Shown one piece after another: positions 11,366 through 60,752 of a stretch of DNA of 64,000 nucleotides. Both the position numbers and the translations under genes were made by a program. Location of the stretch: contig JAILMW010000024.1 of assembly GCA_024692235.1 (NCBI GenBank), positions 93,748 through 157,747 on the forward strand, given 5' to 3'. Numbering within the stretch: position 1 is the first letter of the stretch; each line of letters opens with the position of its first letter. Origin of the DNA: Saccharofermentans sp. (GTDB lineage: Bacteria; Bacillota; Clostridia; Saccharofermentanales; Saccharofermentanaceae). The notes beneath the pieces were generated by a model. It was given only the letters and a program-made list of their open reading frames with translations, ran no database searches and was not told the origin of the DNA.

Positions 11366-13114
11366 TTACTGTCTTACCTTGATGTGAACTTCACGGAGCT
11401 GCTGCTCTGTAACTTCACCGGGAGCACCGCAGAGAAGATCCTGTGCGTTACCGTTCATGGGGAATGCGATAACCTCACGGATGGACTCTTCGTTCCTGAG
11501 GAGCATGATCATACGGTCAACACCGGGAGCCATACCTGCATGAGGCGGAGCACCGTAGGCGAATGCCGTATAAAGAGCACCGAACTTCTTCTGAAGATCC
11601 TCTTCGCTGTAGCCTGCGATCTCGAATGCCTTCTTCATGATCATGAGGTCATGGTTACGAACGGCACCGGATGAGAGCTCTACACCGTTACATACGATAT
11701 CGTACTGATAAGCAAGGATCTCTTCGGGCTTCTTGTTCTCAAGAGCCTCGAGTCCGCCCTGGGGCATGGAGAAAGGATTATGTGTGAAGATATAACCCTT
11801 AATATCCTTGTCGTACTCGTACATGGGGAAATCATTTACATAGCAGAAACGGTAAGCGTTCTTCTCGATAAGGTCGAGTCTTGCGCCAAGCTCATTCCTG
11901 ATCTGTCCTGCGAAGGAGTTAGCTCTTGCCTCCGTATCGGCAATGAAGAAGATGGTATCTCCTGCTGTAAGACCTGCAAGGTCACGGATCTCTGTCTTCA
12001 TGTCATCGGGGATGAACTTATCGATAGGTCCCTTGTAGGACATATCCTCGAGGACCTCAAGGTATCCGAGGCCGCCCATACCGATCTCCTGAGCAAACTT
12101 GAGCATCTTCTCATGCTGGCCCTTACTGAGCTTAGCGTGTACATTGATAGCTCTTACTGTCTTATCGTGGAAAGGCTTGAAGGAACATCTGGAGAAGAAC
12201 TCCGTAACATCAATGATCCTCAAGGGATTTCTGAGGTCGGGCTTATCGGAACCGAACTGAAGCATTGCATCCTTATAAGAGATTACGGGATAAGGTGCTG
12301 CAGTTACCTGTGCGCCCTCGGGAGCAAACTTCTCGAATGCAGCCGTAAGGATCTCCTCACCTGCTCTGAATACGTCTTCCTGAGTAGCGAAGCTCATCTC
12401 GAAGTCGAGCTGATAGAACTCTCCGGGAGATCTGTCTGCTCTTGCATCCTCGTCTCTGAAACAGGGAGCGATCTGGAAATACTTATCAAATCCCGATACC
12501 ATCAGGAGCTGCTTGAACTGCTGAGGTGCCTGGGGAAGAGCATAGAACTTGCCCTTATACTTTCTTGAAGGAACGATATAGTCACGAGCACCCTCGGGTG
12601 AAGAAGATGTAAGGATAGGAGTCTGGATCTCCAAAAATCCCATCTCAGTCATCTTCTGACGAAGGAAAGAGATGACCTTGGATCTGAATACGATATTGTC
12701 CTTGACCTTCTTATTACGAAGATCCAAATATCTGTACTTAAGTCTTACGTCCTCACGGATCTCCTTTGATGTCTGAACTTCAAAGGGAAGCTGTGCTCTT
12801 ACCTTACCCAGAACCTCTACGCTCTTGCAGTCGAGCTCGATCGTACCTGTCTCGATCTTGGGGTTATATGTCTCTTCGTCTCTGTGATCGATGATACCTT
12901 CAACGGAGATACAGTCTTCCTTAACAAGACCTTCAAGAAGAGTAGTGTCTCTCATTACAACCTGAAGGACTCCGTACATATCACGAAGGTCGATGAAGGA
13001 TACGCCGCCGTGGTCACGGATATTCTCGATCCAACCTGCTGCTCTTACATGAGATCCTACATCCTTCTCTGAGATCTCATTGATGACTTTGTCACGATAG
13101 ATGTTAGCTGCCAT
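11366..13114 (-). CDS. aspS: Aspartate--tRNA ligase
   Basis: Class II aaRS motifs (FLEIQTPILTSSSPEGARDYIVPSR, FRDEDARADRSPGEFYQLDFEMSF, GMAPGVDRMIMLL); start MAANIYRDKV, upstream extension is T-box leader. Confidence 0.96.
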   Translation of the reverse strand: MAANIYRDKVINEISEKDVGSHVRAAGWIENIRDHGGVSFIDLRDMYGVLQVVMRDTTLLEGLVKEDCISVEGIIDHRDEETYNPKIETGTIELDCKSVEVLGKVRAQLPFEVQTSKEIREDVRLKYRYLDLRNKKVKDNIVFRSKVISFLRQKMTEMGFLEIQTPILTSSSPEGARDYIVPSRKYKGKFYALPQAPQQFKQLLMVSGFDKYFQIAPCFRDEDARADRSPGEFYQLDFEMSFATQEDVFRAGEEILTAAFEKFAPEGAQVTAAPYPVISYKDAMLQFGSDKPDLRNPLRIIDVTEFFSRCSFKPFHDKTVRAINVHAKLSKGQHEKMLKFAQEIGMGGLGYLEVLEDMSYKGPIDKFIPDDMKTEIRDLAGLTAGDTIFFIADTEARANSFAGQIRNELGARLDLIEKNAYRFCYVNDFPMYEYDKDIKGYIFTHNPFSMPQGGLEALENKKPEEILAYQYDIVCNGVELSSGAVRNHDLMIMKKAFEIAGYSEEDLQKKFGALYTAFAYGAPPHAGMAPGVDRMIMLLRNEESIREVIAFPMNGNAQDLLCGAPGEVTEQQLREVHIKVRQ

Positions 13115-13124
13115 TATCTTTTCC

Positions 13125-13391
13125 TCCCGTAAATACAAAAATCGCCCCAAACGACTCTTCTTACTGTCGTTCAGGACGAACTTACATGTCCGCGGTACCA
13201 CCTGATTTACTGTTCAAATACAGTCTGCTCTGCTCCCTTATCGCGGGAAGTTACGGCTCGGCTAATAGCATTCGCGTTCACCTCGCTGCTGGTAAAGTGT
13301 TATTCGCTCCGATTCATTCCGCCGAACCTCTCACCTTATGTCGACTCTCTGTAATGCGATAATCGAAGTTACTTCTCTTCGTCATAGCGTC
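13125..13391 (-). promoter_or_regulatory. T-box riboswitch leader of aspS
   Basis: T-box core TGGTACCGCGG at 13190-13200; Stem I GAAGAGAAGTAA; terminator CGTCCTGAACGAC/GTCGTTTGGGGCG followed by ATTTTT. Confidence 0.92.
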
Positions 13392-13397
13392 TTGTGG

Positions 13398-13426
13398 ATG
13401 ATATAACAATCCCTGAGGGTTGTCAA
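13398..13426 (-). promoter_or_regulatory. SigA-type promoter of the aspS T-box transcript
   Basis: TTGACA (13421-13426), 17 nt spacer, TATCAT (13398-13403) on the minus strand. Confidence 0.75.
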
Positions 13427-15582
13427 TCACACGACACCGGAATACCGCCCGTATATCTTACGATATAAGGCACAGGGCCTCTGTCACCGTAATCGATATA
13501 TGTCTCGGGATCTTCGACACTTGCTATCCTGTACCCGGAGATCTCGCCTACGAAGGGGATCCCGTTGACTTTATAGTTGTCGGAAGTGATATTGGTACCG
13601 AACGTGGCATTAAAGTCTTCACAGTAATTATCCAGGTAAGTCTTGCCGGAAGTATCTTCATCACTGTCAGGATCAGCATAATAAGGATGATTCCTGAACC
13701 TTTGAGCCATATCATCACCCTGAGTCTGTACATCATCCGTAAAGCTGATGTTCGTAGCGTGGATGACCACGCCGTCACCCATATAGACCTCTATATGGTC
13801 ATGCCCCGCATGTCCGTTAACAGGAGTACAGTCAGGATTGATCACGATGATATCGCCTCTTTGAAGCTTTGTACAATCTCCGTCAAAGGGAACCTTTACG
13901 AAACCGTAGTCAGCCATCTGTGAAGCCATGTCAAAGACCGCGATGTTCCTGTGCTTGGATTTGTCGAGGCCGTAATTGATATCAAGTCCTCCGCCCTCAG
14001 CGAACATATAGACAGCAAAAGAAGCACAGTCATAATCCCCGTTATCACCCCAGCGGAGCACACTGTTATTGTAACCGTGAGAATCATCATTGGCCATGTT
14101 TACACCCAGCTTCAGCGCGCCGTCGATCACGGCCTCAGGCATATTCTCAACGGAGATCCTGAAGTTGCTGTCATTCGCAAGATAGTCATTGTAACCGTTA
14201 CCGGCCGCATTCAGAGAAGTCAGCCATCCGGGACACTCGCAGAGTCTTTCCAGGGCAGACTTTACCGCTTCGCTCTTCTCAACATCCTCAGCCATCAGGC
14301 ATCTCATATATCTGAGCGTCGCGCTCAAAGATCCGACAGTAATATCATTGCGGTTGAGCCTCTCGGAGAATGACGGATCATTGAGCAGTACATCTCTTAA
14401 CATCGATCTTCTGTTCTCGTTGACTGAACCGTCATCATTTATCAGGAAATGCTCCGTGAAGAAGACTGCGTCATCAGGGAGTCCTGCGTCTACCGCATTA
14501 TTGATACGGTCAAGTGTTACCGTATCGGAGCACAGCATATTCTGACCGGCGTTAACCCTCATAAGATCGCCGTATGCATCTATCTGGTCTATATCCTCCA
14601 ATTCACCCGAGACCCCGGGTCTTGAACCGTCTTCGATCTCCTTCAGAGCCGTCAGTTCACGACGTATACTGACGGCGAGCCTGTCAGTTGCACCTGAACA
14701 CTGATCATTCAGGGGCCTGAAATGCACCGATACATCGTCAGGTAAGGCCAGCTGTGATAGAGCGGTATTTACCTCGACAACATCTCCGCTTATCCTGTCG
14801 GCTCTGCTGCGAAGAGATAAGATGAGTTCCTCCAATTCACGCTCATCGACCTCGAATCTACCGTTCCCGATGCACGAAGCATATCCTTCGGCATACTCAT
14901 AGGAAGTCTGATACATGGAATATGCAATGTAAGAGACCGTGCGCATGATCCTTATATGCGTATTCTCGATATGCGCCTTAACAGCCTGAGCATACATCCC
15001 CTGAAATGCATCGGTACCGACAAATTCCGTAGCGGCATCGATAAAGACATCGATCAGGTCGATAGCCCTTCTAAGGGCATCAGCGACACTCCTTACACTC
15101 TCGATTTCCCGATCGGATACATGAAGATACTCATAGTCAAGATCAACATGCGTTATCGGTCTTTGAACGCCCATCGGCATCGGACCGCAAAATCCCGTAT
15201 TGGGAGAGCGTACGAATCCGTATGGTACCGGTCCCACAAAAGAGTCGGGAACACGAGGTCCGAACTCTTCAGAGTAAGGTCCCGCTTCAACGTGCGAGGC
15301 AGAGTCGAGCAGCTGATCGGCAAATGAAGCATCAAGTACCAGGAAGAAACGGGTACAGAATGAGATAAATCTCCAGTCATCGCTCATAGCATTAAGGCAC
15401 TGTCGTATCGAATCGAAGAAAAAGGAACAGGATTCGGCGATCTTGGTCGCTATCGATTCAGGATATCCCCTGCGGATCTCCCTGTTCAGGTGAGTCTTAA
15501 GATCACGGATACTGTCGATACATGAATTCATGATCCTGCAGAGTTCATCATGTGATACTACTATCTCGTCATATCTTGTCAT
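13423..15582 (-). CDS. 719-aa protein: long helical N-terminal region plus C-terminal NlpC/P60- or CHAP-like domain (paralog A)
   Basis: GDYDCASFAVYMFAEGGGL (Cys motif), LQRGDIIVINPD, GHDHIEVYMGDGVVIHATN (His motif); no signal peptide; paralogous to 15842..17905. Confidence 0.75.
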   Translation of the reverse strand: MTRYDEIVVSHDELCRIMNSCIDSIRDLKTHLNREIRRGYPESIATKIAESCSFFFDSIRQCLNAMSDDWRFISFCTRFFLVLDASFADQLLDSASHVEAGPYSEEFGPRVPDSFVGPVPYGFVRSPNTGFCGPMPMGVQRPITHVDLDYEYLHVSDREIESVRSVADALRRAIDLIDVFIDAATEFVGTDAFQGMYAQAVKAHIENTHIRIMRTVSYIAYSMYQTSYEYAEGYASCIGNGRFEVDERELEELILSLRSRADRISGDVVEVNTALSQLALPDDVSVHFRPLNDQCSGATDRLAVSIRRELTALKEIEDGSRPGVSGELEDIDQIDAYGDLMRVNAGQNMLCSDTVTLDRINNAVDAGLPDDAVFFTEHFLINDDGSVNENRRSMLRDVLLNDPSFSERLNRNDITVGSLSATLRYMRCLMAEDVEKSEAVKSALERLCECPGWLTSLNAAGNGYNDYLANDSNFRISVENMPEAVIDGALKLGVNMANDDSHGYNNSVLRWGDNGDYDCASFAVYMFAEGGGLDINYGLDKSKHRNIAVFDMASQMADYGFVKVPFDGDCTKLQRGDIIVINPDCTPVNGHAGHDHIEVYMGDGVVIHATNISFTDDVQTQGDDMAQRFRNHPYYADPDSDEDTSGKTYLDNYCEDFNATFGTNITSDNYKVNGIPFVGEISGYRIASVEDPETYIDYGDRGPVPYIVRYTGGIPVSCD

Positions 15583-15585
15583 ATC

Positions 15586-15822
15586 TTATTCCCCATGTTC
15601 CAAAACAGCCTGCTCGTTATATTCCATATCCTCGATCAGTCGGGAAAAGGAATTTGTCTCTTCATATTCCGCGAGAGCACGTTCAAGTGACGGTGTCGTT
15701 GATATAAGATCCCTTACGGCAGCTGCAGATTCGCTTATGCTCTGTCTTATGCTCTCGTCATGATGGTATAACTTAGTCGTATAGTAGACATCGTTAAAAA
15801 AATCGTTCAGACCTATTGCCAT
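15586..15822 (-). CDS. 78-aa helical small protein, putative partner of paralog A
   Basis: HHDESIRQSISESAAAVRDLISTTPSLERALAEYEETNSF resembles the 80-aa ORF at 17917; 4 nt upstream of paralog A. Confidence 0.75.
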   Translation of the reverse strand: MAIGLNDFFNDVYYTTKLYHHDESIRQSISESAAAVRDLISTTPSLERALAEYEETNSFSRLIEDMEYNEQAVLEHGE

Positions 15823-15841
15823 ATCCCCTTCTCCTATCGCT

Positions 15842-17905
15842 CTATATCCCGCCGGTGTATCTGATCACATAAGCAACTTCACCTCTGTTACCGGCGTCTA
15901 TATACTCGTTGCTTCCGGGCTTTGCTATCCTGTAACCAGTTATCTCACCGACGTACGGCAGTCCGTCCTGATCGGCATAATTCGTTTCCCTGATATTGGT
16001 ACCGAAAGTACCGTCAAAATACTCGCCCCAGTCATTAAGATCATAAAGGTGAGTCGCACCTTCCTTCCCCTCATTCGCCGCATTGACAGCGATATTATCT
16101 TCCAGTTTTCTTCGCTGCTGATCTCCGACAGCGGAATCGGCAGCATCATCAAAACTGGTAGCATGGATCGTCCTGCCGTCACCGATATAGACCTCGGCAT
16201 GGGCCGTTTTACCATCGGGATTTATCACCAGGATGTCACCTGGCTGCAATTTTGAACAGTCGTTATCAAAATGGACCTTCTCAAAACCGTAATCGCGCAG
16301 TTTATCATACATAGTACTGACAACGATAGGATCATCATTATTAGGTCCGTGAGGGATTGGCAACCCTGCTCCGTCCGCGAACATACAGACGGCAAATGAA
16401 GCGCAGTCATAGTCATAGGGACCCCAGCGTTTTTCCTCGATATACTTGTAGTATCCGTGAGAGTCATCCTTGGCGATCCTTATTCCCCAGTCGATAGCGT
16501 CCCTTATCACATCTTCAGGTCTGTGTTCTGCTGATCTGATGAGATTTTCAGGATTCGAAAGGTATGAATTGCCGGAATCCAGTGATCTACTGAGATCAGC
16601 CATCCACTCAGGACAATCGAACAACCTGTTCAGCGCAGTATTTGTCGCTTCATTCTGATCGATCCCTATCTGCAATAATGCAGCATAATACCGGATCATT
16701 CCTCGCATTGAATCGTCGGTGATCAGAGAAGAACTTAACCTTGAAGCAAGGTCGGGGACACTCTCAAGTTCACTCCTGAGCTCGTTCAGGTTATAATCGC
16801 TGATCGTTCCGCTATCCGTTATATCGGCTCCGGCGAAAAACACAGCCACATCATAGTTTCTCCTTGTCATTATCCTTGAAGACAATCCGCTGAGACGTGT
16901 TGTATTGCTCGTCATAAGTCCACGCCCGCAGTTTCTCCCGAACAGATCCGCATACTGGTACAGGATATCAAGATCATCCATATACTGTTGAAGATCTCTT
17001 CTGCCCCGACCTTCTATATACGTCAGATCATTCACTTCCTCTATGATCGATCTGACATACTGTGTCGTAGCTGAGGAAACATTATCTTCGAGCCTGACTA
17101 CAGGGATATTCTTCTCAGTAAGACGGTCGATGCACCGATCCGCTTCGTAGACATCCTGTGCGATATTCCTGTTATGTATCCTCAAAGTATCGATAAGAGT
17201 CTCAAGGCCCTGCTCATCTATCAGGAAATCATTACCGCCATACATTGAATCGTATTCACCGACATATGATGAAAAGCTCCGTGCCATTTCATACGCCAGA
17301 TCGGCGATACTTCTCATGATCCTCAAATGTGTAATACGGATATAGGTCTTGATCGCATTACCGTATCGTCCGAGGAGAGCAGGAGAAGCTATAAATATAT
17401 TTGAACGTTCAACATACTCATCAGCCGCCTGTCCGAGGGTTCTAAGTGAACCGATAACGTTGCGGACCGCCTCCAGATCAAGAGCAGTAACATAGAGCCT
17501 GTCGTAAGAAAGATCAATGCTATGGACCGTCACGTCAATGACCGGTACACGCATCCCCAACGGCCCTCTCACAGTTCTCGAATCAAAGGAGATCTGTCTC
17601 CACTCTTCAAAATTGCCGGTAGTCGGTATCCCGTTCTGTCGTATGAGACTTGCGTTCGTTGAATCAAGCTCTCTGAAGCAGCCAAGGCAGACACCGACAT
17701 ATGACCAATCATTTCGCATTGCATCGATGCATCGTAATACGGAAGCAATGAAGTACTCGGAGACCTCACACATCTTTGCAGCGATACATCTGCCATCAGT
17801 GACCGCGCAGCGTCTGTGAGTTATACCGCTGATAGTATCCAATGGATCTATACAGTTATCTATCAATCTCGTAAGAAGGGAATCATCTACTCTTATAACG
17901 CGCAT
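15842..17905 (-). CDS. 687-aa protein: long helical N-terminal region plus C-terminal NlpC/P60- or CHAP-like domain (paralog B)
   Basis: YDYDCASFAVCMFADGAGL, LQPGDILVINPDGKTAHAEVYIGDGRTIHATS, C-term VAYVIRYTGGI; no signal peptide. Confidence 0.75.
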   Translation of the reverse strand: MRVIRVDDSLLTRLIDNCIDPLDTISGITHRRCAVTDGRCIAAKMCEVSEYFIASVLRCIDAMRNDWSYVGVCLGCFRELDSTNASLIRQNGIPTTGNFEEWRQISFDSRTVRGPLGMRVPVIDVTVHSIDLSYDRLYVTALDLEAVRNVIGSLRTLGQAADEYVERSNIFIASPALLGRYGNAIKTYIRITHLRIMRSIADLAYEMARSFSSYVGEYDSMYGGNDFLIDEQGLETLIDTLRIHNRNIAQDVYEADRCIDRLTEKNIPVVRLEDNVSSATTQYVRSIIEEVNDLTYIEGRGRRDLQQYMDDLDILYQYADLFGRNCGRGLMTSNTTRLSGLSSRIMTRRNYDVAVFFAGADITDSGTISDYNLNELRSELESVPDLASRLSSSLITDDSMRGMIRYYAALLQIGIDQNEATNTALNRLFDCPEWMADLSRSLDSGNSYLSNPENLIRSAEHRPEDVIRDAIDWGIRIAKDDSHGYYKYIEEKRWGPYDYDCASFAVCMFADGAGLPIPHGPNNDDPIVVSTMYDKLRDYGFEKVHFDNDCSKLQPGDILVINPDGKTAHAEVYIGDGRTIHATSFDDAADSAVGDQQRRKLEDNIAVNAANEGKEGATHLYDLNDWGEYFDGTFGTNIRETNYADQDGLPYVGEITGYRIAKPGSNEYIDAGNRGEVAYVIRYTGGI

Positions 17906-17916
17906 GATACTCCACC

Positions 17917-18159
17917 TCAGAATTCCGCGTTCAACACGGCATTATCATTATCAGCGGTCCTCCGGTAAAGGATATCCATACAGGATGCCGCTTCATATTC
18001 CGATACCGCCCTGACAAGCTTCGGAGATGCGGAAACAGAAACGCGCACCGCGCTCTTTATCGCATTAATACTTTCTCTTATGGAATCATCACATTCAGTC
18101 ATCCGTTCCGCATACATCCTAAGATCGGATGCATCGTTGATCATATCTGATTCGTTCAT
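17917..18159 (-). CDS. 80-aa helical small protein, putative partner of paralog B
   Basis: MNESDMINDASDLRMYAERMTECDDSIRESINAIKSAVRVSVSASPKLVRAVSEYEAAS...; RBS GAAAGAGGAAGAGAT before the ATG at 18159. Confidence 0.75.
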   Translation of the reverse strand: MNESDMINDASDLRMYAERMTECDDSIRESINAIKSAVRVSVSASPKLVRAVSEYEAASCMDILYRRTADNDNAVLNAEF

Positions 18160-18208
18160 ATCTCTTCCTCTTTCCACAAAGGTCCGCTTCCGAATAAACC
18201 TGTCAAAT

Positions 18209-18237
18209 AGTTTATATTTCTCTCGGTTTTTTGTCAA
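18209..18237 (-). promoter_or_regulatory. SigA-type promoter of the duplicated module
   Basis: TTGACA (18232-18237), 17 nt spacer, TAAACT (18209-18214) on the minus strand. Confidence 0.7.
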
Positions 18238-18335
18238 TTTCCAGGATATTTGTTCAAGGTCAGATATCATATATCGCCGGATTTATGGTAAGGTAATATA
18301 TATTTTTGGCGGAATTGCCGCCCAGTGAGGGAATA

Positions 18336-19532
18336 ATGAAAAAACTAGGATTTGTAGTGCCGTGGTATGGTGACAAGATACCGGGCGGAGCAGAGATGGA
18401 GCTTCGCGGAATAAGCAAGCACCTGAAGGCATCAGGTCTTGACGTAGAGATATTAACCACTTGCATCGAGAAGTTCACGGCAGACTGGAACAAGGATCAC
18501 TATAAGCCCGGAGTGACCGAAGAAGGCGGCCTTACCATCAGAAGGTTCAAGGTAAGGAAGAGAGATACCGCAGGATTCGATGCCATCAACCTTAAGCTCA
18601 TGAACGATCAGAAGATCACTCCCGAAGAAGAGAAATACTTCATTCAGGAGATGGTCAACAGCACTGATCTTTACGATTATATAAAAGAGCACAAGGACGA
18701 CTACGATCTTTTTGTATTCATCCCTTATATGTTCGGTACGACTTTCTACGGAATAAAGGCATGCCCCGAGAAGGCAGTCCTTATCCCCTGTCTTCACGAC
18801 GAGTCCTATGCTTATATGGATATCTACAAGGAAGCCTTCGAGAACATGGCGGGAGCCATATACCACGCCAAGAACGAATACCTCCTTGCAAATAAGATCT
18901 ACGATCTTTCCAAGGTCGAGCAGGCAGTATTAGGCGAAGGTATCGACACTGAATTCGAGTACGACGCCGACCGCTTCAGGAAGACTACCGGCATAGAAGA
19001 TCCCTTTATCCTCTACGCAGGGCGTAAGGATGCAGGTAAGAATATCTATCTCCTTATAGATTATTTCAGAGAATATAAGCACCGTCATAAGGACAGCGAC
19101 CTCAAGCTTGTACTTATCGGCGGAGGCGAAGTAGATATCCCCGACGATATCAAGGATCAGGTCATCGACTTGGGCTTTGTAGACAAGCAGGTAAAGTACG
19201 ACGGTTGTGCAGCAGCTCTTACTCTCTGTCAGCCTTCCATCCACGAGAGCTTCTCTCTTGTACTTATGGAGAGCTGGCTTTGCGAGCGTCCCGCACTTGT
19301 ACATGCCGACTGCGACGTCACCAGAGGCTTTGCACAGGAATCCAACTCAGCTCTCTACTTCAAGGACTACTACGAATTCGAAGGCTGTATCGATTACTAC
19401 ATAAGCCACGAAGATATAGCAAGCCGCATGGGAAAGACCGGAAGAGAATTCGTACTTTCCAACTTCAAGTGGGACATAATCGTCGAAAGATATACAGAAT
19501 TCTTCAAAAAGGTTGCTGACAAGACAAAGTGA
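18336..19532 (+). CDS. Glycosyltransferase family 4 protein
   Basis: FVVPWYGDKIPGGAEMELRGISKHL, FILYAGRKDAGKN, CQPSIHESFSLVLMESWLCERPALVH. Confidence 0.9.
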   Translation: MKKLGFVVPWYGDKIPGGAEMELRGISKHLKASGLDVEILTTCIEKFTADWNKDHYKPGVTEEGGLTIRRFKVRKRDTAGFDAINLKLMNDQKITPEEEKYFIQEMVNSTDLYDYIKEHKDDYDLFVFIPYMFGTTFYGIKACPEKAVLIPCLHDESYAYMDIYKEAFENMAGAIYHAKNEYLLANKIYDLSKVEQAVLGEGIDTEFEYDADRFRKTTGIEDPFILYAGRKDAGKNIYLLIDYFREYKHRHKDSDLKLVLIGGGEVDIPDDIKDQVIDLGFVDKQVKYDGCAAALTLCQPSIHESFSLVLMESWLCERPALVHADCDVTRGFAQESNSALYFKDYYEFEGCIDYYISHEDIASRMGKTGREFVLSNFKWDIIVERYTEFFKKVADKTK

Positions 19533-57808: not shown

Positions 57809-58088
57809 TATATACGCCTCCAAACCGAATTATCAGCCGAATTATAATAACATATGCGTCTGATATATGCAAATATCAGATCTTCGGCATTTTTTGCGAA
57901 ACGATTTTTACTTGATGCGGTATCCTTAAAAGTTTACGAATCATCTATTTTCTATTGTCACTTTATCAATATTTGGGATCGTAAACATATATGCACCGTT
58001 AAATATATGCATTTAGAATAGTAAATAGGAATTGTGTCTGTCAGCTGTATACATGTGCGACCTTAGCATAAGAAAGCGAGGGAACATT

Positions 58089-60752
58089 ATGAGACAGAAG
58101 ACAAGAATGCGTCTTAGAAGAGTTGCCGTACTTATCGTAAGCGCGCTGCTCATCATTAACCTGGGTTCTTGGGTCACCGAGAGCAAAGTCCTGGCCGACA
58201 GCACGGACCTTACGGCTGTAGCGACCATGGAACTTCTGGACCTGTACAAGAAGGATGCGGCTAATCAGAATGTATCCCTTCTCGGGAACAACCCGGCCGG
58301 TCTTAACTATGGAGAGACTTTATACGGGCAGCTTAAATGGACTTTCCCTGATGCCCCTCAAGGTACGGTAACTCCCGGGCAGGAATATACCTATGCCCTC
58401 CCTACCGGAATAACATTCTCCTCCATGAGCGGCAATCTCCTTAAAGGCAGCAATCCCGTAGGCACATACAATATCTCGGGTACATCCATAACTATCATCT
58501 ATTCCGATGATAGCCTAGGACAGGAGTTCTGCAACGGAACCAACAGATGGAGCGATCTTACATTCTCGGGTAAGATCACCAAAGAAGATACGGAAGGTCA
58601 GTTCCTCACTTCCACTACAGTGAACTTCAGCGGAATAGGCGAAAGAACGATCGGCCTTGTACCTCCTGCTGCACCGACATCTCTTGACGTCAATAAAGAT
58701 ACGAGAGAAGATATCAGCACTACCGCCGAACACAGGTATCGTTATACGGCTTATGTAATATCCCACGGACAGAATGATAATGTAGTTATCAATGACTGGA
58801 CTTCACAGGGTCTTTATATGCAGGAAAATACGATCAGCCTGTATAGCGATGCTGCATGTACGATCCCTTATACCGGTGCTTCTCAGAACTGGGCTGACTC
58901 TACGGGATTTAAATATACGATCCCCTCAATGTCCGACGGTCAGACCATATATATAAGATATGAAGTAGTGATCGATAACGCCCTTTACGACCGCAATACT
59001 GCCGAGACGAATTTTCAGGGATACCACGGCAACGTCACCAATACCATAGAGGCAGTAAGCGATACCTCTTCAAGGGTGGTCGATTATAACGATATCGGTA
59101 CGTACAGTGTATATATGAATAAATATCACGGAGTAGATACCGTGATCGACGGCACTATCAACTGGGAGATATATCTTTATGAGATCCCCGATTCATTTAA
59201 CTGCGGATATATAATCGATACCATACCTGCGAATACAGAATATGTAGACGGATCTCTCTATGTTAATTACTGGGGAGATGACCATACCGAAGCGGTAACG
59301 GTCGAGAGGATATCCGATACTCAGATCAAGTTCAATATAAACGATCCCGATCTTCTCAATTATCTTAAAAATGTCAGCGGAGCCAACTGCCAGATAACCT
59401 ATAAAGTGCGCATCATTCGCCAGTTGACTTCCTATGCGGTATACGATAACAGCGCAGTACTGTATTTCGACGGTAATATAGTGGATACGGCAAGAGCAGA
59501 TGCAGGATATACCATGCCTCCGATCCTCGAGAAGACCGGCCTTTATGACGATGCCACGGCTCCCAATGCCTGCTTCGAGGTAACGGTAAACCCGTTGTCG
59601 CTCGACATAGATCAGGGACAGGATACATTGACACTATCCGATACATTACCTGATGTATACGATCTTCAGGTATCCTCTGTAGTGATAACAAGAAGTGACG
59701 GTCAGCCGCTCACCTCAGAATCCTATTCCTACGATGAAGCCACAAGAGAGCTTACGCTCAACATCCTTGACGGGAAAGCATATACCATCACTTACAGAGC
59801 TACTGTCAACAGAAGGATCGGTACACCGCTTGACGAGAACAACAGTACCAATACCATATCCGTAAGCGGTGTAACGCCTGTTGTATCAGGAGCAACTCAT
59901 TTCAGCTGTCAGGTCGTAAGAAGCTCGGGATCCGCTTCTTCCTACAACCCGAACATCGCAAATCTCAATGTCATCAAACACGAGACCGGTGATACGACGG
60001 CGGTAATAAGCGGAGCACAATTCACATTAACGGAGATGAACATTTCGAACGGCAATACCGTAACAGCAGGGGATGATGTCATTAAGACGACAAATGCAAA
60101 CGGTATAGCTTCTTTTGAAGTCGAAAGAGAGAAGATCTACATGCTTACGGAGACTCTGGCTCCGTCAGGATACGAGCTCGACGAGACTATTTACTTCTAC
60201 GCATTTGCGGATACTAACAGCAGCTTACCTTCTACGGTCACATATAACGGGCAGACATATACCGTCACCGTTATAGATTCTGACAGAGTAAGCCGTGATG
60301 TATACTTTGCCAATGACAGAGCAGCAGCCGTGATAATCGATCCGGCAACTCCGACGGAACCTGCTGCCACTACCGTTCCGGCTTCGACCGAACCCGCTCA
60401 GACTACACCGACCGCAACAGCGGCTGCGGCGGTCACCACACCCACTGAGCCGTCTTCCGAGCCTTCAGCCACCACGACAACTCAAGATGCGGTAACTGCT
60501 ACGGAACCTGCGACTTCCGGGATCGATCCCAATGACGTCAACGGTGCAGGAAGAGATCTCGGAAGCGAACACCAGACGGAAGCAGCAACAAATGCGGCGG
60601 CAGTCACTTCTGTAGCTTCCACAGGTGAGATATCAAGCTCCGCAAGGATCCTAGGTGTCATCTATATCTTCGTAGCCTTCCAGATGCTGTCTCTCATTCG
60701 TTATGAGCGCAAGCACGGTATGCTCCCTACAGAAAATGATAAACAGGGATAA
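58089..60752 (+). CDS. Cell-wall-anchored surface protein with adhesin-like repeats and a Cna-B/SpaA-type domain
   Basis: Signal peptide; LNVIKHETGDTTAVISGAQFTLTEMN...YMLTETLAPSGYELDE; Thr/Pro linker; C-terminal ASTGE-TM-RYERKHG. Confidence 0.85.
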   Translation: MRQKTRMRLRRVAVLIVSALLIINLGSWVTESKVLADSTDLTAVATMELLDLYKKDAANQNVSLLGNNPAGLNYGETLYGQLKWTFPDAPQGTVTPGQEYTYALPTGITFSSMSGNLLKGSNPVGTYNISGTSITIIYSDDSLGQEFCNGTNRWSDLTFSGKITKEDTEGQFLTSTTVNFSGIGERTIGLVPPAAPTSLDVNKDTREDISTTAEHRYRYTAYVISHGQNDNVVINDWTSQGLYMQENTISLYSDAACTIPYTGASQNWADSTGFKYTIPSMSDGQTIYIRYEVVIDNALYDRNTAETNFQGYHGNVTNTIEAVSDTSSRVVDYNDIGTYSVYMNKYHGVDTVIDGTINWEIYLYEIPDSFNCGYIIDTIPANTEYVDGSLYVNYWGDDHTEAVTVERISDTQIKFNINDPDLLNYLKNVSGANCQITYKVRIIRQLTSYAVYDNSAVLYFDGNIVDTARADAGYTMPPILEKTGLYDDATAPNACFEVTVNPLSLDIDQGQDTLTLSDTLPDVYDLQVSSVVITRSDGQPLTSESYSYDEATRELTLNILDGKAYTITYRATVNRRIGTPLDENNSTNTISVSGVTPVVSGATHFSCQVVRSSGSASSYNPNIANLNVIKHETGDTTAVISGAQFTLTEMNISNGNTVTAGDDVIKTTNANGIASFEVEREKIYMLTETLAPSGYELDETIYFYAFADTNSSLPSTVTYNGQTYTVTVIDSDRVSRDVYFANDRAAAVIIDPATPTEPAATTVPASTEPAQTTPTATAAAAVTTPTEPSSEPSATTTTQDAVTATEPATSGIDPNDVNGAGRDLGSEHQTEAATNAAAVTSVASTGEISSSARILGVIYIFVAFQMLSLIRYERKHGMLPTENDKQG

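What the first reader, a model, noticed from the sequence alone, without database searches (positions are those of the whole stretch)
13423..18159. Tandem-duplicated two-gene module: about 80-aa helical protein plus about 700-aa protein with NlpC/P60-like tail
Seen directly: the order small-large-small-large on one strand with gaps of 3-19 nt. The small proteins share SIR(Q/E)SI and (A/V)xEYE; the large ones share CIxAMxxDW, THIRIMR, a CPxW segment, DDSHGY, DYDCASFAV, LQxGDIxVINPD, a His-containing strand and an IRYTGGI C-terminus. Knowledge: LXG/WXG100 type VII effectors pair small helical partners with long helical domains and a C-terminal enzymatic domain. Inference: this may be an effector or peptidoglycan-remodelling system with dedicated partners. 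No YxxxD/E or canonical LXG motif was recognised, so it may be a new family.
Basis: partly seen in the sequence, partly recalled or inferred. Interest (0 to 1): 0.72.

Follow-up and report, generated by a model that had tools for sequence, protein, structure and literature searches.

The report
Tandem LXG cell-wall-cutting toxin pairs
A Ruminococcaceae-type bacterium carries two copies of a small-plus-large gene pair whose large protein joins the export domain of a known family of bacterial weapons (LXG, type VII secretion) to a peptidoglycan-cutting enzyme, so these are probably secreted wall-cutting toxins aimed at neighbouring bacteria, a cargo type I did not find described for that family.

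Summary
In detail: S2-L2-S1-L1 is a four-gene minus-strand operon (13423-18159; gaps 11, 19, 3 nt). L1/L2 are paralogues (37%, E 6e-113), and so are S1/S2 (36%, E 3e-10).

Relatives pass the Pfam LXG cut-off, and the family profile matches a solved LXG domain (8gmh) with L-x-G in register (L2: L177-L-G179). The C-terminus is an NlpC/P60 endopeptidase with its catalytic residues (L2: C501, H569, H581).

In all 85 held genomes of the genus, full-length relatives occur in four; three of these are the only genomes with T7SSb protein EssB (Fisher p 4e-5). In one, two such pairs sit directly before WXG100-EsaA-EsaB-EssB-EssC. The window's own assembly lacks T7SS genes, but both flanks of its sister's T7SS locus lie at contig ends, so an assembly gap is likely.

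Relatives behave like polymorphic toxins: swapped C-termini (NlpC/P60 or CHAP), downstream lipoproteins, and one locus where the pair is deleted but the lipoproteins remain. The window pairs have no adjacent immunity gene.

Verdict: T7SSb LXG effectors with peptidoglycan-endopeptidase cargo and one small partner each; a new variant of a known kind.

The parts
18209..18237 (-). promoter-like sequence TTGACA-17 nt-TAAACT before S2
   Evidence: read in the sequence; not tested
17917..18159 (-). S2, 80-aa small partner of L2
   Evidence: ORF; homologous to S1 (E 2.6e-10); no Pfam or NCBIfam match
15842..17905 (-). L2, 687-aa LXG protein with NlpC/P60 endopeptidase domain
17081..17503 (-). LXG domain of L2 (about aa 135-275; L-L-G at 177-179)
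   Evidence: Pfam LXG E 0.0027, under cut-off; family profile against 8gmh_B E 9.5e-5
16157..16429 (-). NlpC/P60 domain of L2 (aa 493-583; C501, H569, H581)
   Evidence: Pfam NLPC_P60 E 7e-8, over cut-off; invariant Cys and His
16200..16950 (-). segment of L2 (end of LXG part, linker and most of NlpC/P60) exchanged relative to the sister species
   Evidence: 79-91% identity inside a 98-100% tract; dS 0.46 and 0.14 against 0.00-0.02 in the rest of L2
15586..15822 (-). S1, 78-aa small partner of L1; predicted all-helical
   Evidence: ORF; AlphaFold2 pLDDT 76
13423..15582 (-). L1, 719-aa LXG protein with NlpC/P60 endopeptidase domain
14713..15135 (-). LXG domain of L1 (about aa 150-290, F-Q-G in place of L-x-G)
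   Evidence: by alignment to L2 and relatives; no direct Pfam LXG match
13753..14055 (-). NlpC/P60 domain of L1 (aa 510-610; C519, H596, H608)
   Evidence: Pfam E 2.5e-4, 21.4 bits, just under the 23-bit cut-off; catalytic residues

Best explanation
L1 and L2 are LXG-family substrates of a type VIIb secretion system that carry a C-terminal NlpC/P60 peptidoglycan endopeptidase (by family, cutting the stem peptide, typically at D-Glu-mDAP). Each is made together with its own small helical partner (S1, S2), which binds the N-terminal helical/LXG part and brings it to the secretion ATPase EssC, as Lap proteins do for Streptococcus LXG toxins. After export the endopeptidase cuts the wall of neighbouring bacteria. 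Shown by sequence: domains, operon, pairing, genetic link to T7SSb, C-terminal domain swapping, and deletion of a related pair with its lipoproteins kept. Inferred: binding, export, cut site, antibacterial purpose.
For: LXG: Pfam over cut-off in relatives (37.3, 28.5, 34.1 bits; 36.7 bits in another own-genome pair); solved LXG domain 8gmh_B matched with L-x-G in register. NlpC/P60: Pfam and solved enzymes. Partner upstream in all 11 readable pairs, -16 to +17 nt. T7SSb link: two pairs directly before WXG100-EsaA-EsaB-EssB-EssC in G017; in 85 genomes of the genus EssB occurs in three, all among the four with full-length relatives (Fisher p 4e-5). Own genome: both flanks of the sister's T7SS locus lie at contig ends. 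Polymorphic-toxin behaviour: NlpC/P60 or CHAP on one shared N-terminus, lipoproteins directly downstream in two loci, small and large gene deleted with lipoproteins kept in the sister species, exchanged catalytic segment in L2.
Against: No immunity gene next to the window pairs, nor next to the G017 pairs or the C28 pair. No T7SS gene in the own assembly. L1 alone reaches no LXG match and L2 only a sub-threshold one. The small proteins belong to no known Lap family and lack a conserved export motif. The whole-protein structure model failed.
Confidence: 0.62

Rival explanations
1. Self-directed wall hydrolases: T7SSb-exported NlpC/P60 enzymes that open the producer's own peptidoglycan so that the secretion apparatus can cross it, as EssH does in Staphylococcus aureus.
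For: No immunity gene beside the window pairs or the G017 pairs. Two G017 pairs head the T7SSb operon itself. A dedicated hydrolase for T7SSb assembly has a precedent, EssH (PMC13059805).
Against: Five NlpC/P60 or CHAP members or so per genome are more than a helper needs; C-termini are swapped between NlpC/P60 and CHAP; relatives have lipoproteins that outlive the enzyme gene; proteins at the same site are only 24-29% identical between species while aspS is 97%. G001 has other LXG-like genes, not an NlpC pair, at the head of its T7SSb operon.
Confidence: 0.22
2. Orphan relics in this genome: the species has lost its T7SSb, so the pairs are expressed but not exported, or decay.
For: No EssC, EssB or other T7SSb gene in an assembly rated 99.5% complete.
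Against: The assembly breaks exactly at the place of the sister's T7SS locus, on both sides. All four frames are open, catalytic residues are kept, and the cassette was recently shared with a species that has T7SSb.
Confidence: 0.09
3. Phage-derived lysis or tail proteins with no link to secretion.
For: The nearest catalytic domains outside the family are in short endolysin-like proteins beside phage-like genes (G063, G091), and some members match Pfam ELLD, 'endolysin-like domain'.
Against: No phage genes around the window pairs, which lie between aspS and a glycosyltransferase gene in three species. No full-length relative in the phage, viral-contig or plasmid collections. The LXG domain is not a phage lysin part.
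Confidence: 0.03

Closest known systems
LXG polymorphic toxins of T7SSb (TelA-TelD of Streptococcus intermedius; PMC5555719, PMC9600955)
   Same: N-terminal LXG domain, variable C-terminal enzyme, small helical partner encoded directly upstream, association with T7SSb
   Different: about 130 aa of extra helical sequence before the LXG domain, one partner instead of the Lap1-Lap2 pair, partner of no known Lap family, peptidoglycan endopeptidase as cargo, no adjacent immunity gene at the window pairs
TelC, the LXG lipid II phosphatase
   Same: LXG effector that acts on the cell wall from outside the membrane
   Different: TelC attacks the precursor lipid II and has another fold; here the predicted target is peptidoglycan itself
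EssH, the CHAP hydrolase of the S. aureus T7SSb (PMC13059805)
   Same: T7SSb-linked peptidoglycan hydrolase
   Different: EssH is a separate CHAP protein serving machine assembly, not fused to LXG and not paired with a small partner (literature)
Tox-NLPC/P60 of polymorphic toxins (PMC3482391)
   Same: NlpC/P60 domain as the C-terminal toxin of a polymorphic toxin
   Different: that catalogue lists it in Bacteroidetes and deltaproteobacteria with T6SS, PVC and TcdB/TcaC, not with LXG/T7SS
Phage endolysins with NlpC/P60 (ELLD-like) domain
   Same: catalytic domain with the same motifs (DDSHGYD, DCSS)
   Different: no LXG domain, no small partner, phage context

Membership tests
LXG polymorphic toxin family | LXG domain (PF04740) over the Pfam cut-off in the window proteins themselves | tested here: not met
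   L2 18.1 bits against cut-off 26.5; L1 no match
LXG polymorphic toxin family | LXG domain recognised in full-length homologues or by profile | tested here: met
   37.3, 34.1 and 28.5 bits in G017 proteins, 36.7 in the own-genome C28 protein; profile against 8gmh_B E 9.5e-5
LXG polymorphic toxin family | L-x-G motif in register | tested here: met
   L-L-G in L2, F-Q-G in L1; Gly invariant
LXG polymorphic toxin family | variable C-terminal toxin domain on a shared N-terminus | tested here: met
   NlpC/P60 or CHAP on N-termini 33% identical
LXG polymorphic toxin family | T7SSb in the same genome | tested here: inconclusive
   present in G001, G017, G093; own genome broken at that locus
LXG polymorphic toxin family | adjacent immunity gene | tested here: not met
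   none beside the window pairs; lipoprotein genes follow two related large genes
LXG polymorphic toxin family | export through T7SSb and toxicity to bacteria | not testable with these tools
   needs experiment
Lap1/Lap2 targeting factors (DUF3130, DUF3958) | match to a known Lap family | tested here: not met
   no such Pfam or NCBIfam match for S1 or S2 at E up to 10
Lap1/Lap2 targeting factors (DUF3130, DUF3958) | small helical protein encoded directly before the LXG gene | tested here: met
   11 of 11 readable pairs; S1 all-helical, pLDDT 76
Lap1/Lap2 targeting factors (DUF3130, DUF3958) | FxxxD (or YxxxD/E) export motif | tested here: not met
   not conserved among the small proteins
NlpC/P60 peptidases | catalytic Cys-His-polar residue in the family fold | tested here: met
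   C501, H569, H581 in L2; C519, H596, H608 in L1; Pfam and PDB profile matches
NlpC/P60 peptidases | cleaves peptidoglycan stem peptides | not testable with these tools
   needs a muropeptide assay
EssH-type T7SSb assembly hydrolase | stand-alone CHAP protein | tested here: not met
   window enzymes are NlpC/P60 and fused to an LXG domain
EssH-type T7SSb assembly hydrolase | required for T7SSb secretion by the producer | not testable with these tools
   needs a deletion mutant

The most novel reading that the evidence does not exclude
A lineage of LXG effectors whose cargo is mainly peptidoglycan hydrolases (NlpC/P60, CHAP), with the second targeting factor built into the extra N-terminal helical region so that one small partner suffices, and with surface lipoproteins as immunity that act in trans, so that some pairs need no adjacent immunity gene.
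Probability: 0.3. Interest if true: 0.62.

Novelty: new variant of a known kind. Interest (0 to 1): 0.5.

Why it matters
How T7SSb toxins cross the wall of the producer and of the target cell is listed as an open question in a recent review (PMC10765036). LXG proteins that themselves carry a wall-cutting enzyme would be direct antibacterial weapons or door-openers for other toxins. The sister species that lost one such pair but kept its lipoproteins makes the toxin-immunity reading directly testable in a cultured strain.

Tried and rejected
AlphaFold2 of L2 with four sequences gave pLDDT 34 and was not used. The S1 model was usable, but Foldseek against the PDB found nothing. Viral-contig scans and the plasmid search gave no relative; the phage search gave one weak catalytic-domain hit. 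A class-wide profile search of 392 genomes returned only catalytic-domain matches outside the genus, but it scored only two candidates per genome, so it does not show that LXG relatives are absent there. Missing T7SS genes in the own genome were considered as evidence against and set aside, because the sister's T7SS flanks both fall at contig ends. The hits of 50-116 bits with the EssC model in the own genome are FtsK-like proteins, not EssC. No paper was found for 8GMH with LXG. Rfam found nothing in the window.

Full report
Observation. The window holds four minus-strand ORFs in the order S2-L2-S1-L1 (17917-18159, 15842-17905, 15586-15822, 13423-15582) with gaps of 11, 19 and 3 nt. L1 and L2 are 37% identical over their length, S1 and S2 36% over 72 aa. 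The cassette is flanked by aspS and mtaB on one side and a divergent glycosyltransferase gene on the other (names from reading the products). A promoter-like TTGACA-17-TAAACT stands before S2 (inspection).

Domains. Pfam gives NlpC/P60 in both large proteins (over cut-off in L2, just under in L1) and a sub-threshold LXG match in L2. Diverse relatives make the assignment firm: LXG passes its cut-off in three G017 proteins and in another own-genome protein on contig C28, and the family profile matches the solved LXG domain 8gmh_B and solved NlpC/P60 enzymes. In that alignment the L-T-G of the solved LXG domain falls on L177-L178-G179 of L2, and the Gly is invariant in the family. The layout is: about 130 aa of extra, largely helical sequence with an invariant M..DW, the LXG domain, a linker, the NlpC/P60 domain, and a short C-terminal tail. 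Cys501 and His569 are invariant; His581 is kept in L1 and L2 but is Ser in some relatives.

Small partners. All 11 readable pairs have the small gene directly upstream, from a 16-nt overlap to a 17-nt gap. S1 is predicted all-helical (pLDDT 76). The small proteins match no known Lap family and share no YxxxD/E or FxxxD motif.

Link to T7SSb. In G017 two pairs lie directly upstream of a WXG100 protein, an EsaA-like protein, a small membrane protein, a YukD-like protein, EssB (YukC, 256 bits) and EssC (1293 aa). Behind EssC follows an LXG-operon-like set: DUF4176, a YwqH-like protein, a 96-aa protein and a 547-aa protein with a colicin-DNase-like tail. The sister species G001 (strain KHP2) has the same machinery, with a DUF4176 protein, a 135-aa protein and an LXG-like 592-aa protein in front. 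Across all 85 held genomes of the genus, full-length relatives occur in G000, G001, G017 and G093, and EssB only in G001, G017 and G093; Fisher p 4e-5 (it ignores shared descent). G093 also has a 1419-aa EssC. More distant EssC proteins in G066, G031 and G071 (32-34% identical) come without EssB and without this family.

Own genome. No EssC or EssB is found. The upstream flank of the sister's T7SS locus matches G000 contig C28 up to 442 bases before its end, and a stretch downstream of the locus matches C19 up to 470 bases before its end. The locus therefore most likely falls between two contigs. The own genome holds three further pairs: C28 (97 aa + 748 aa, NlpC/P60), C31 (88 aa + 713 aa, CHAP, + two lipoproteins) and C31 (182 aa + 615 aa, C-terminus unassigned).

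Signs of a polymorphic toxin system. The G001-C7 NlpC/P60 protein and the G000-C31 CHAP protein share their first 354 aa (33%) but not their C-termini and group together at 100/99. Both are followed at once by lipoproteins that are homologous to each other. In the sister genome the C31 locus is syntenic, but the small gene and the CHAP gene are gone except for about 35 residues of the large protein's start, fused in frame to the first of the two retained lipoproteins. Elsewhere on C31 a short NlpC/P60-like fragment (57% over 21 aa, E 0.002) precedes two lipoproteins, one homologous to the G001-C7 lipoprotein (E 8e-36). Toxin lost with immunity kept is what an antibacterial system would leave; that the lipoproteins are immunity proteins is inference. 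None of this is seen at the window pairs themselves, which have no adjacent lipoprotein.

Evolution of the window cassette. Compared with the sister species, about 13.05-19.45 kb is 95-100% identical, mostly 98% or more, while the sequence on both sides is mostly 80-95%. Inside this tract 16200-16950, the end of the L2 LXG part, the linker and most of the catalytic domain, falls to 79-91%. Synonymous divergence is 0.00-0.03 in S1, S2, L1 and most of L2, 0.46 and 0.14 in the L2 linker and NlpC/P60 part, and 0.06-0.9 in the neighbours. This fits recent transfer of the cassette between the two species plus a separate exchange inside L2. Against G017 the site is the same (aspS 97% identical), while the module proteins are only 24-29% identical. 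The four large proteins at this site form one clade (100/99); whether the duplication is older than the species split is not resolved.

Mechanism. Best supported: S binds the N-terminal part of L, the complex is exported by T7SSb, and the NlpC/P60 domain cuts peptidoglycan of a neighbouring cell. Shown by sequence: domains, pairing, T7SSb association. Inferred: binding, export, cut site, target. I put T7SSb export at about 0.9, peptidoglycan endopeptidase activity at about 0.85, and an antibacterial rather than a self-directed purpose at about 0.7. The main rival is a self-directed, EssH-like role: missing immunity genes speak for it; copy number, domain swapping, divergence at a fixed site and orphan lipoproteins speak against it.

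Novelty. The kind (LXG effector with partner) is known. Peptidoglycan-endopeptidase cargo on LXG is not in the catalogue read (Tox-NLPC/P60 listed with T6SS, PVC and Tc only) and did not appear in the T7SSb review searched. The library is incomplete, so earlier mention elsewhere is possible. I rate it a new variant of a known kind.

Noticed in passing
L121:5501-7717 (G001 contig C7) compared with L075:4789-9424 (G000 contig C31): The sister species lost a small gene plus an LXG-CHAP gene but kept two tandem lipoproteins, the first fused to about 35 residues of the lost large protein: a scar that looks like toxin loss with immunity kept.
   Followed up: yes
L122:3442-5851 (G000 contig C31): A short NlpC/P60-like fragment followed by two lipoprotein genes, one of them homologous to the lipoprotein that follows the NlpC/P60 pair of G001 contig C7; probably a broken pair with kept immunity genes.
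   Followed up: partly
window 13050-19450: A tract of 95-100% identity to the sister species within a mostly 80-95% background; it includes the glycosyltransferase gene, so the transfer was wider than the cassette.
   Followed up: partly
L026:12337-15021 (G017): An LXG-operon-like set (DUF4176, YwqH-like, 96-aa, 547-aa with colicin-DNase-like tail, then a 240-aa gene) behind EssC; the 547-aa protein has no Pfam LXG match.
   Followed up: no
G066 C17 (L049), G031 C235 (L050), G071 C15 (L051): Distant EssC proteins without EssB, next to PP2C-type or kinase-like genes and, in G066, a repeated set of 105-aa, 86-aa and about 610-aa proteins; another type VII-like system in the same genus.
   Followed up: no
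L080:2747-3457 (G063) and L081:7121-7846 (G091): Endolysin-like proteins whose catalytic domain shares the DDSHGYD/DCSS motifs of L1 and L2, beside phage-like genes; the toxin domain and phage endolysins look related.
   Followed up: partly
window 58032-60752: A 906-aa protein with a signal-like start, a Thr/Pro-rich stretch and a hydrophobic C-terminal segment, perhaps a surface protein; not examined.
   Followed up: no
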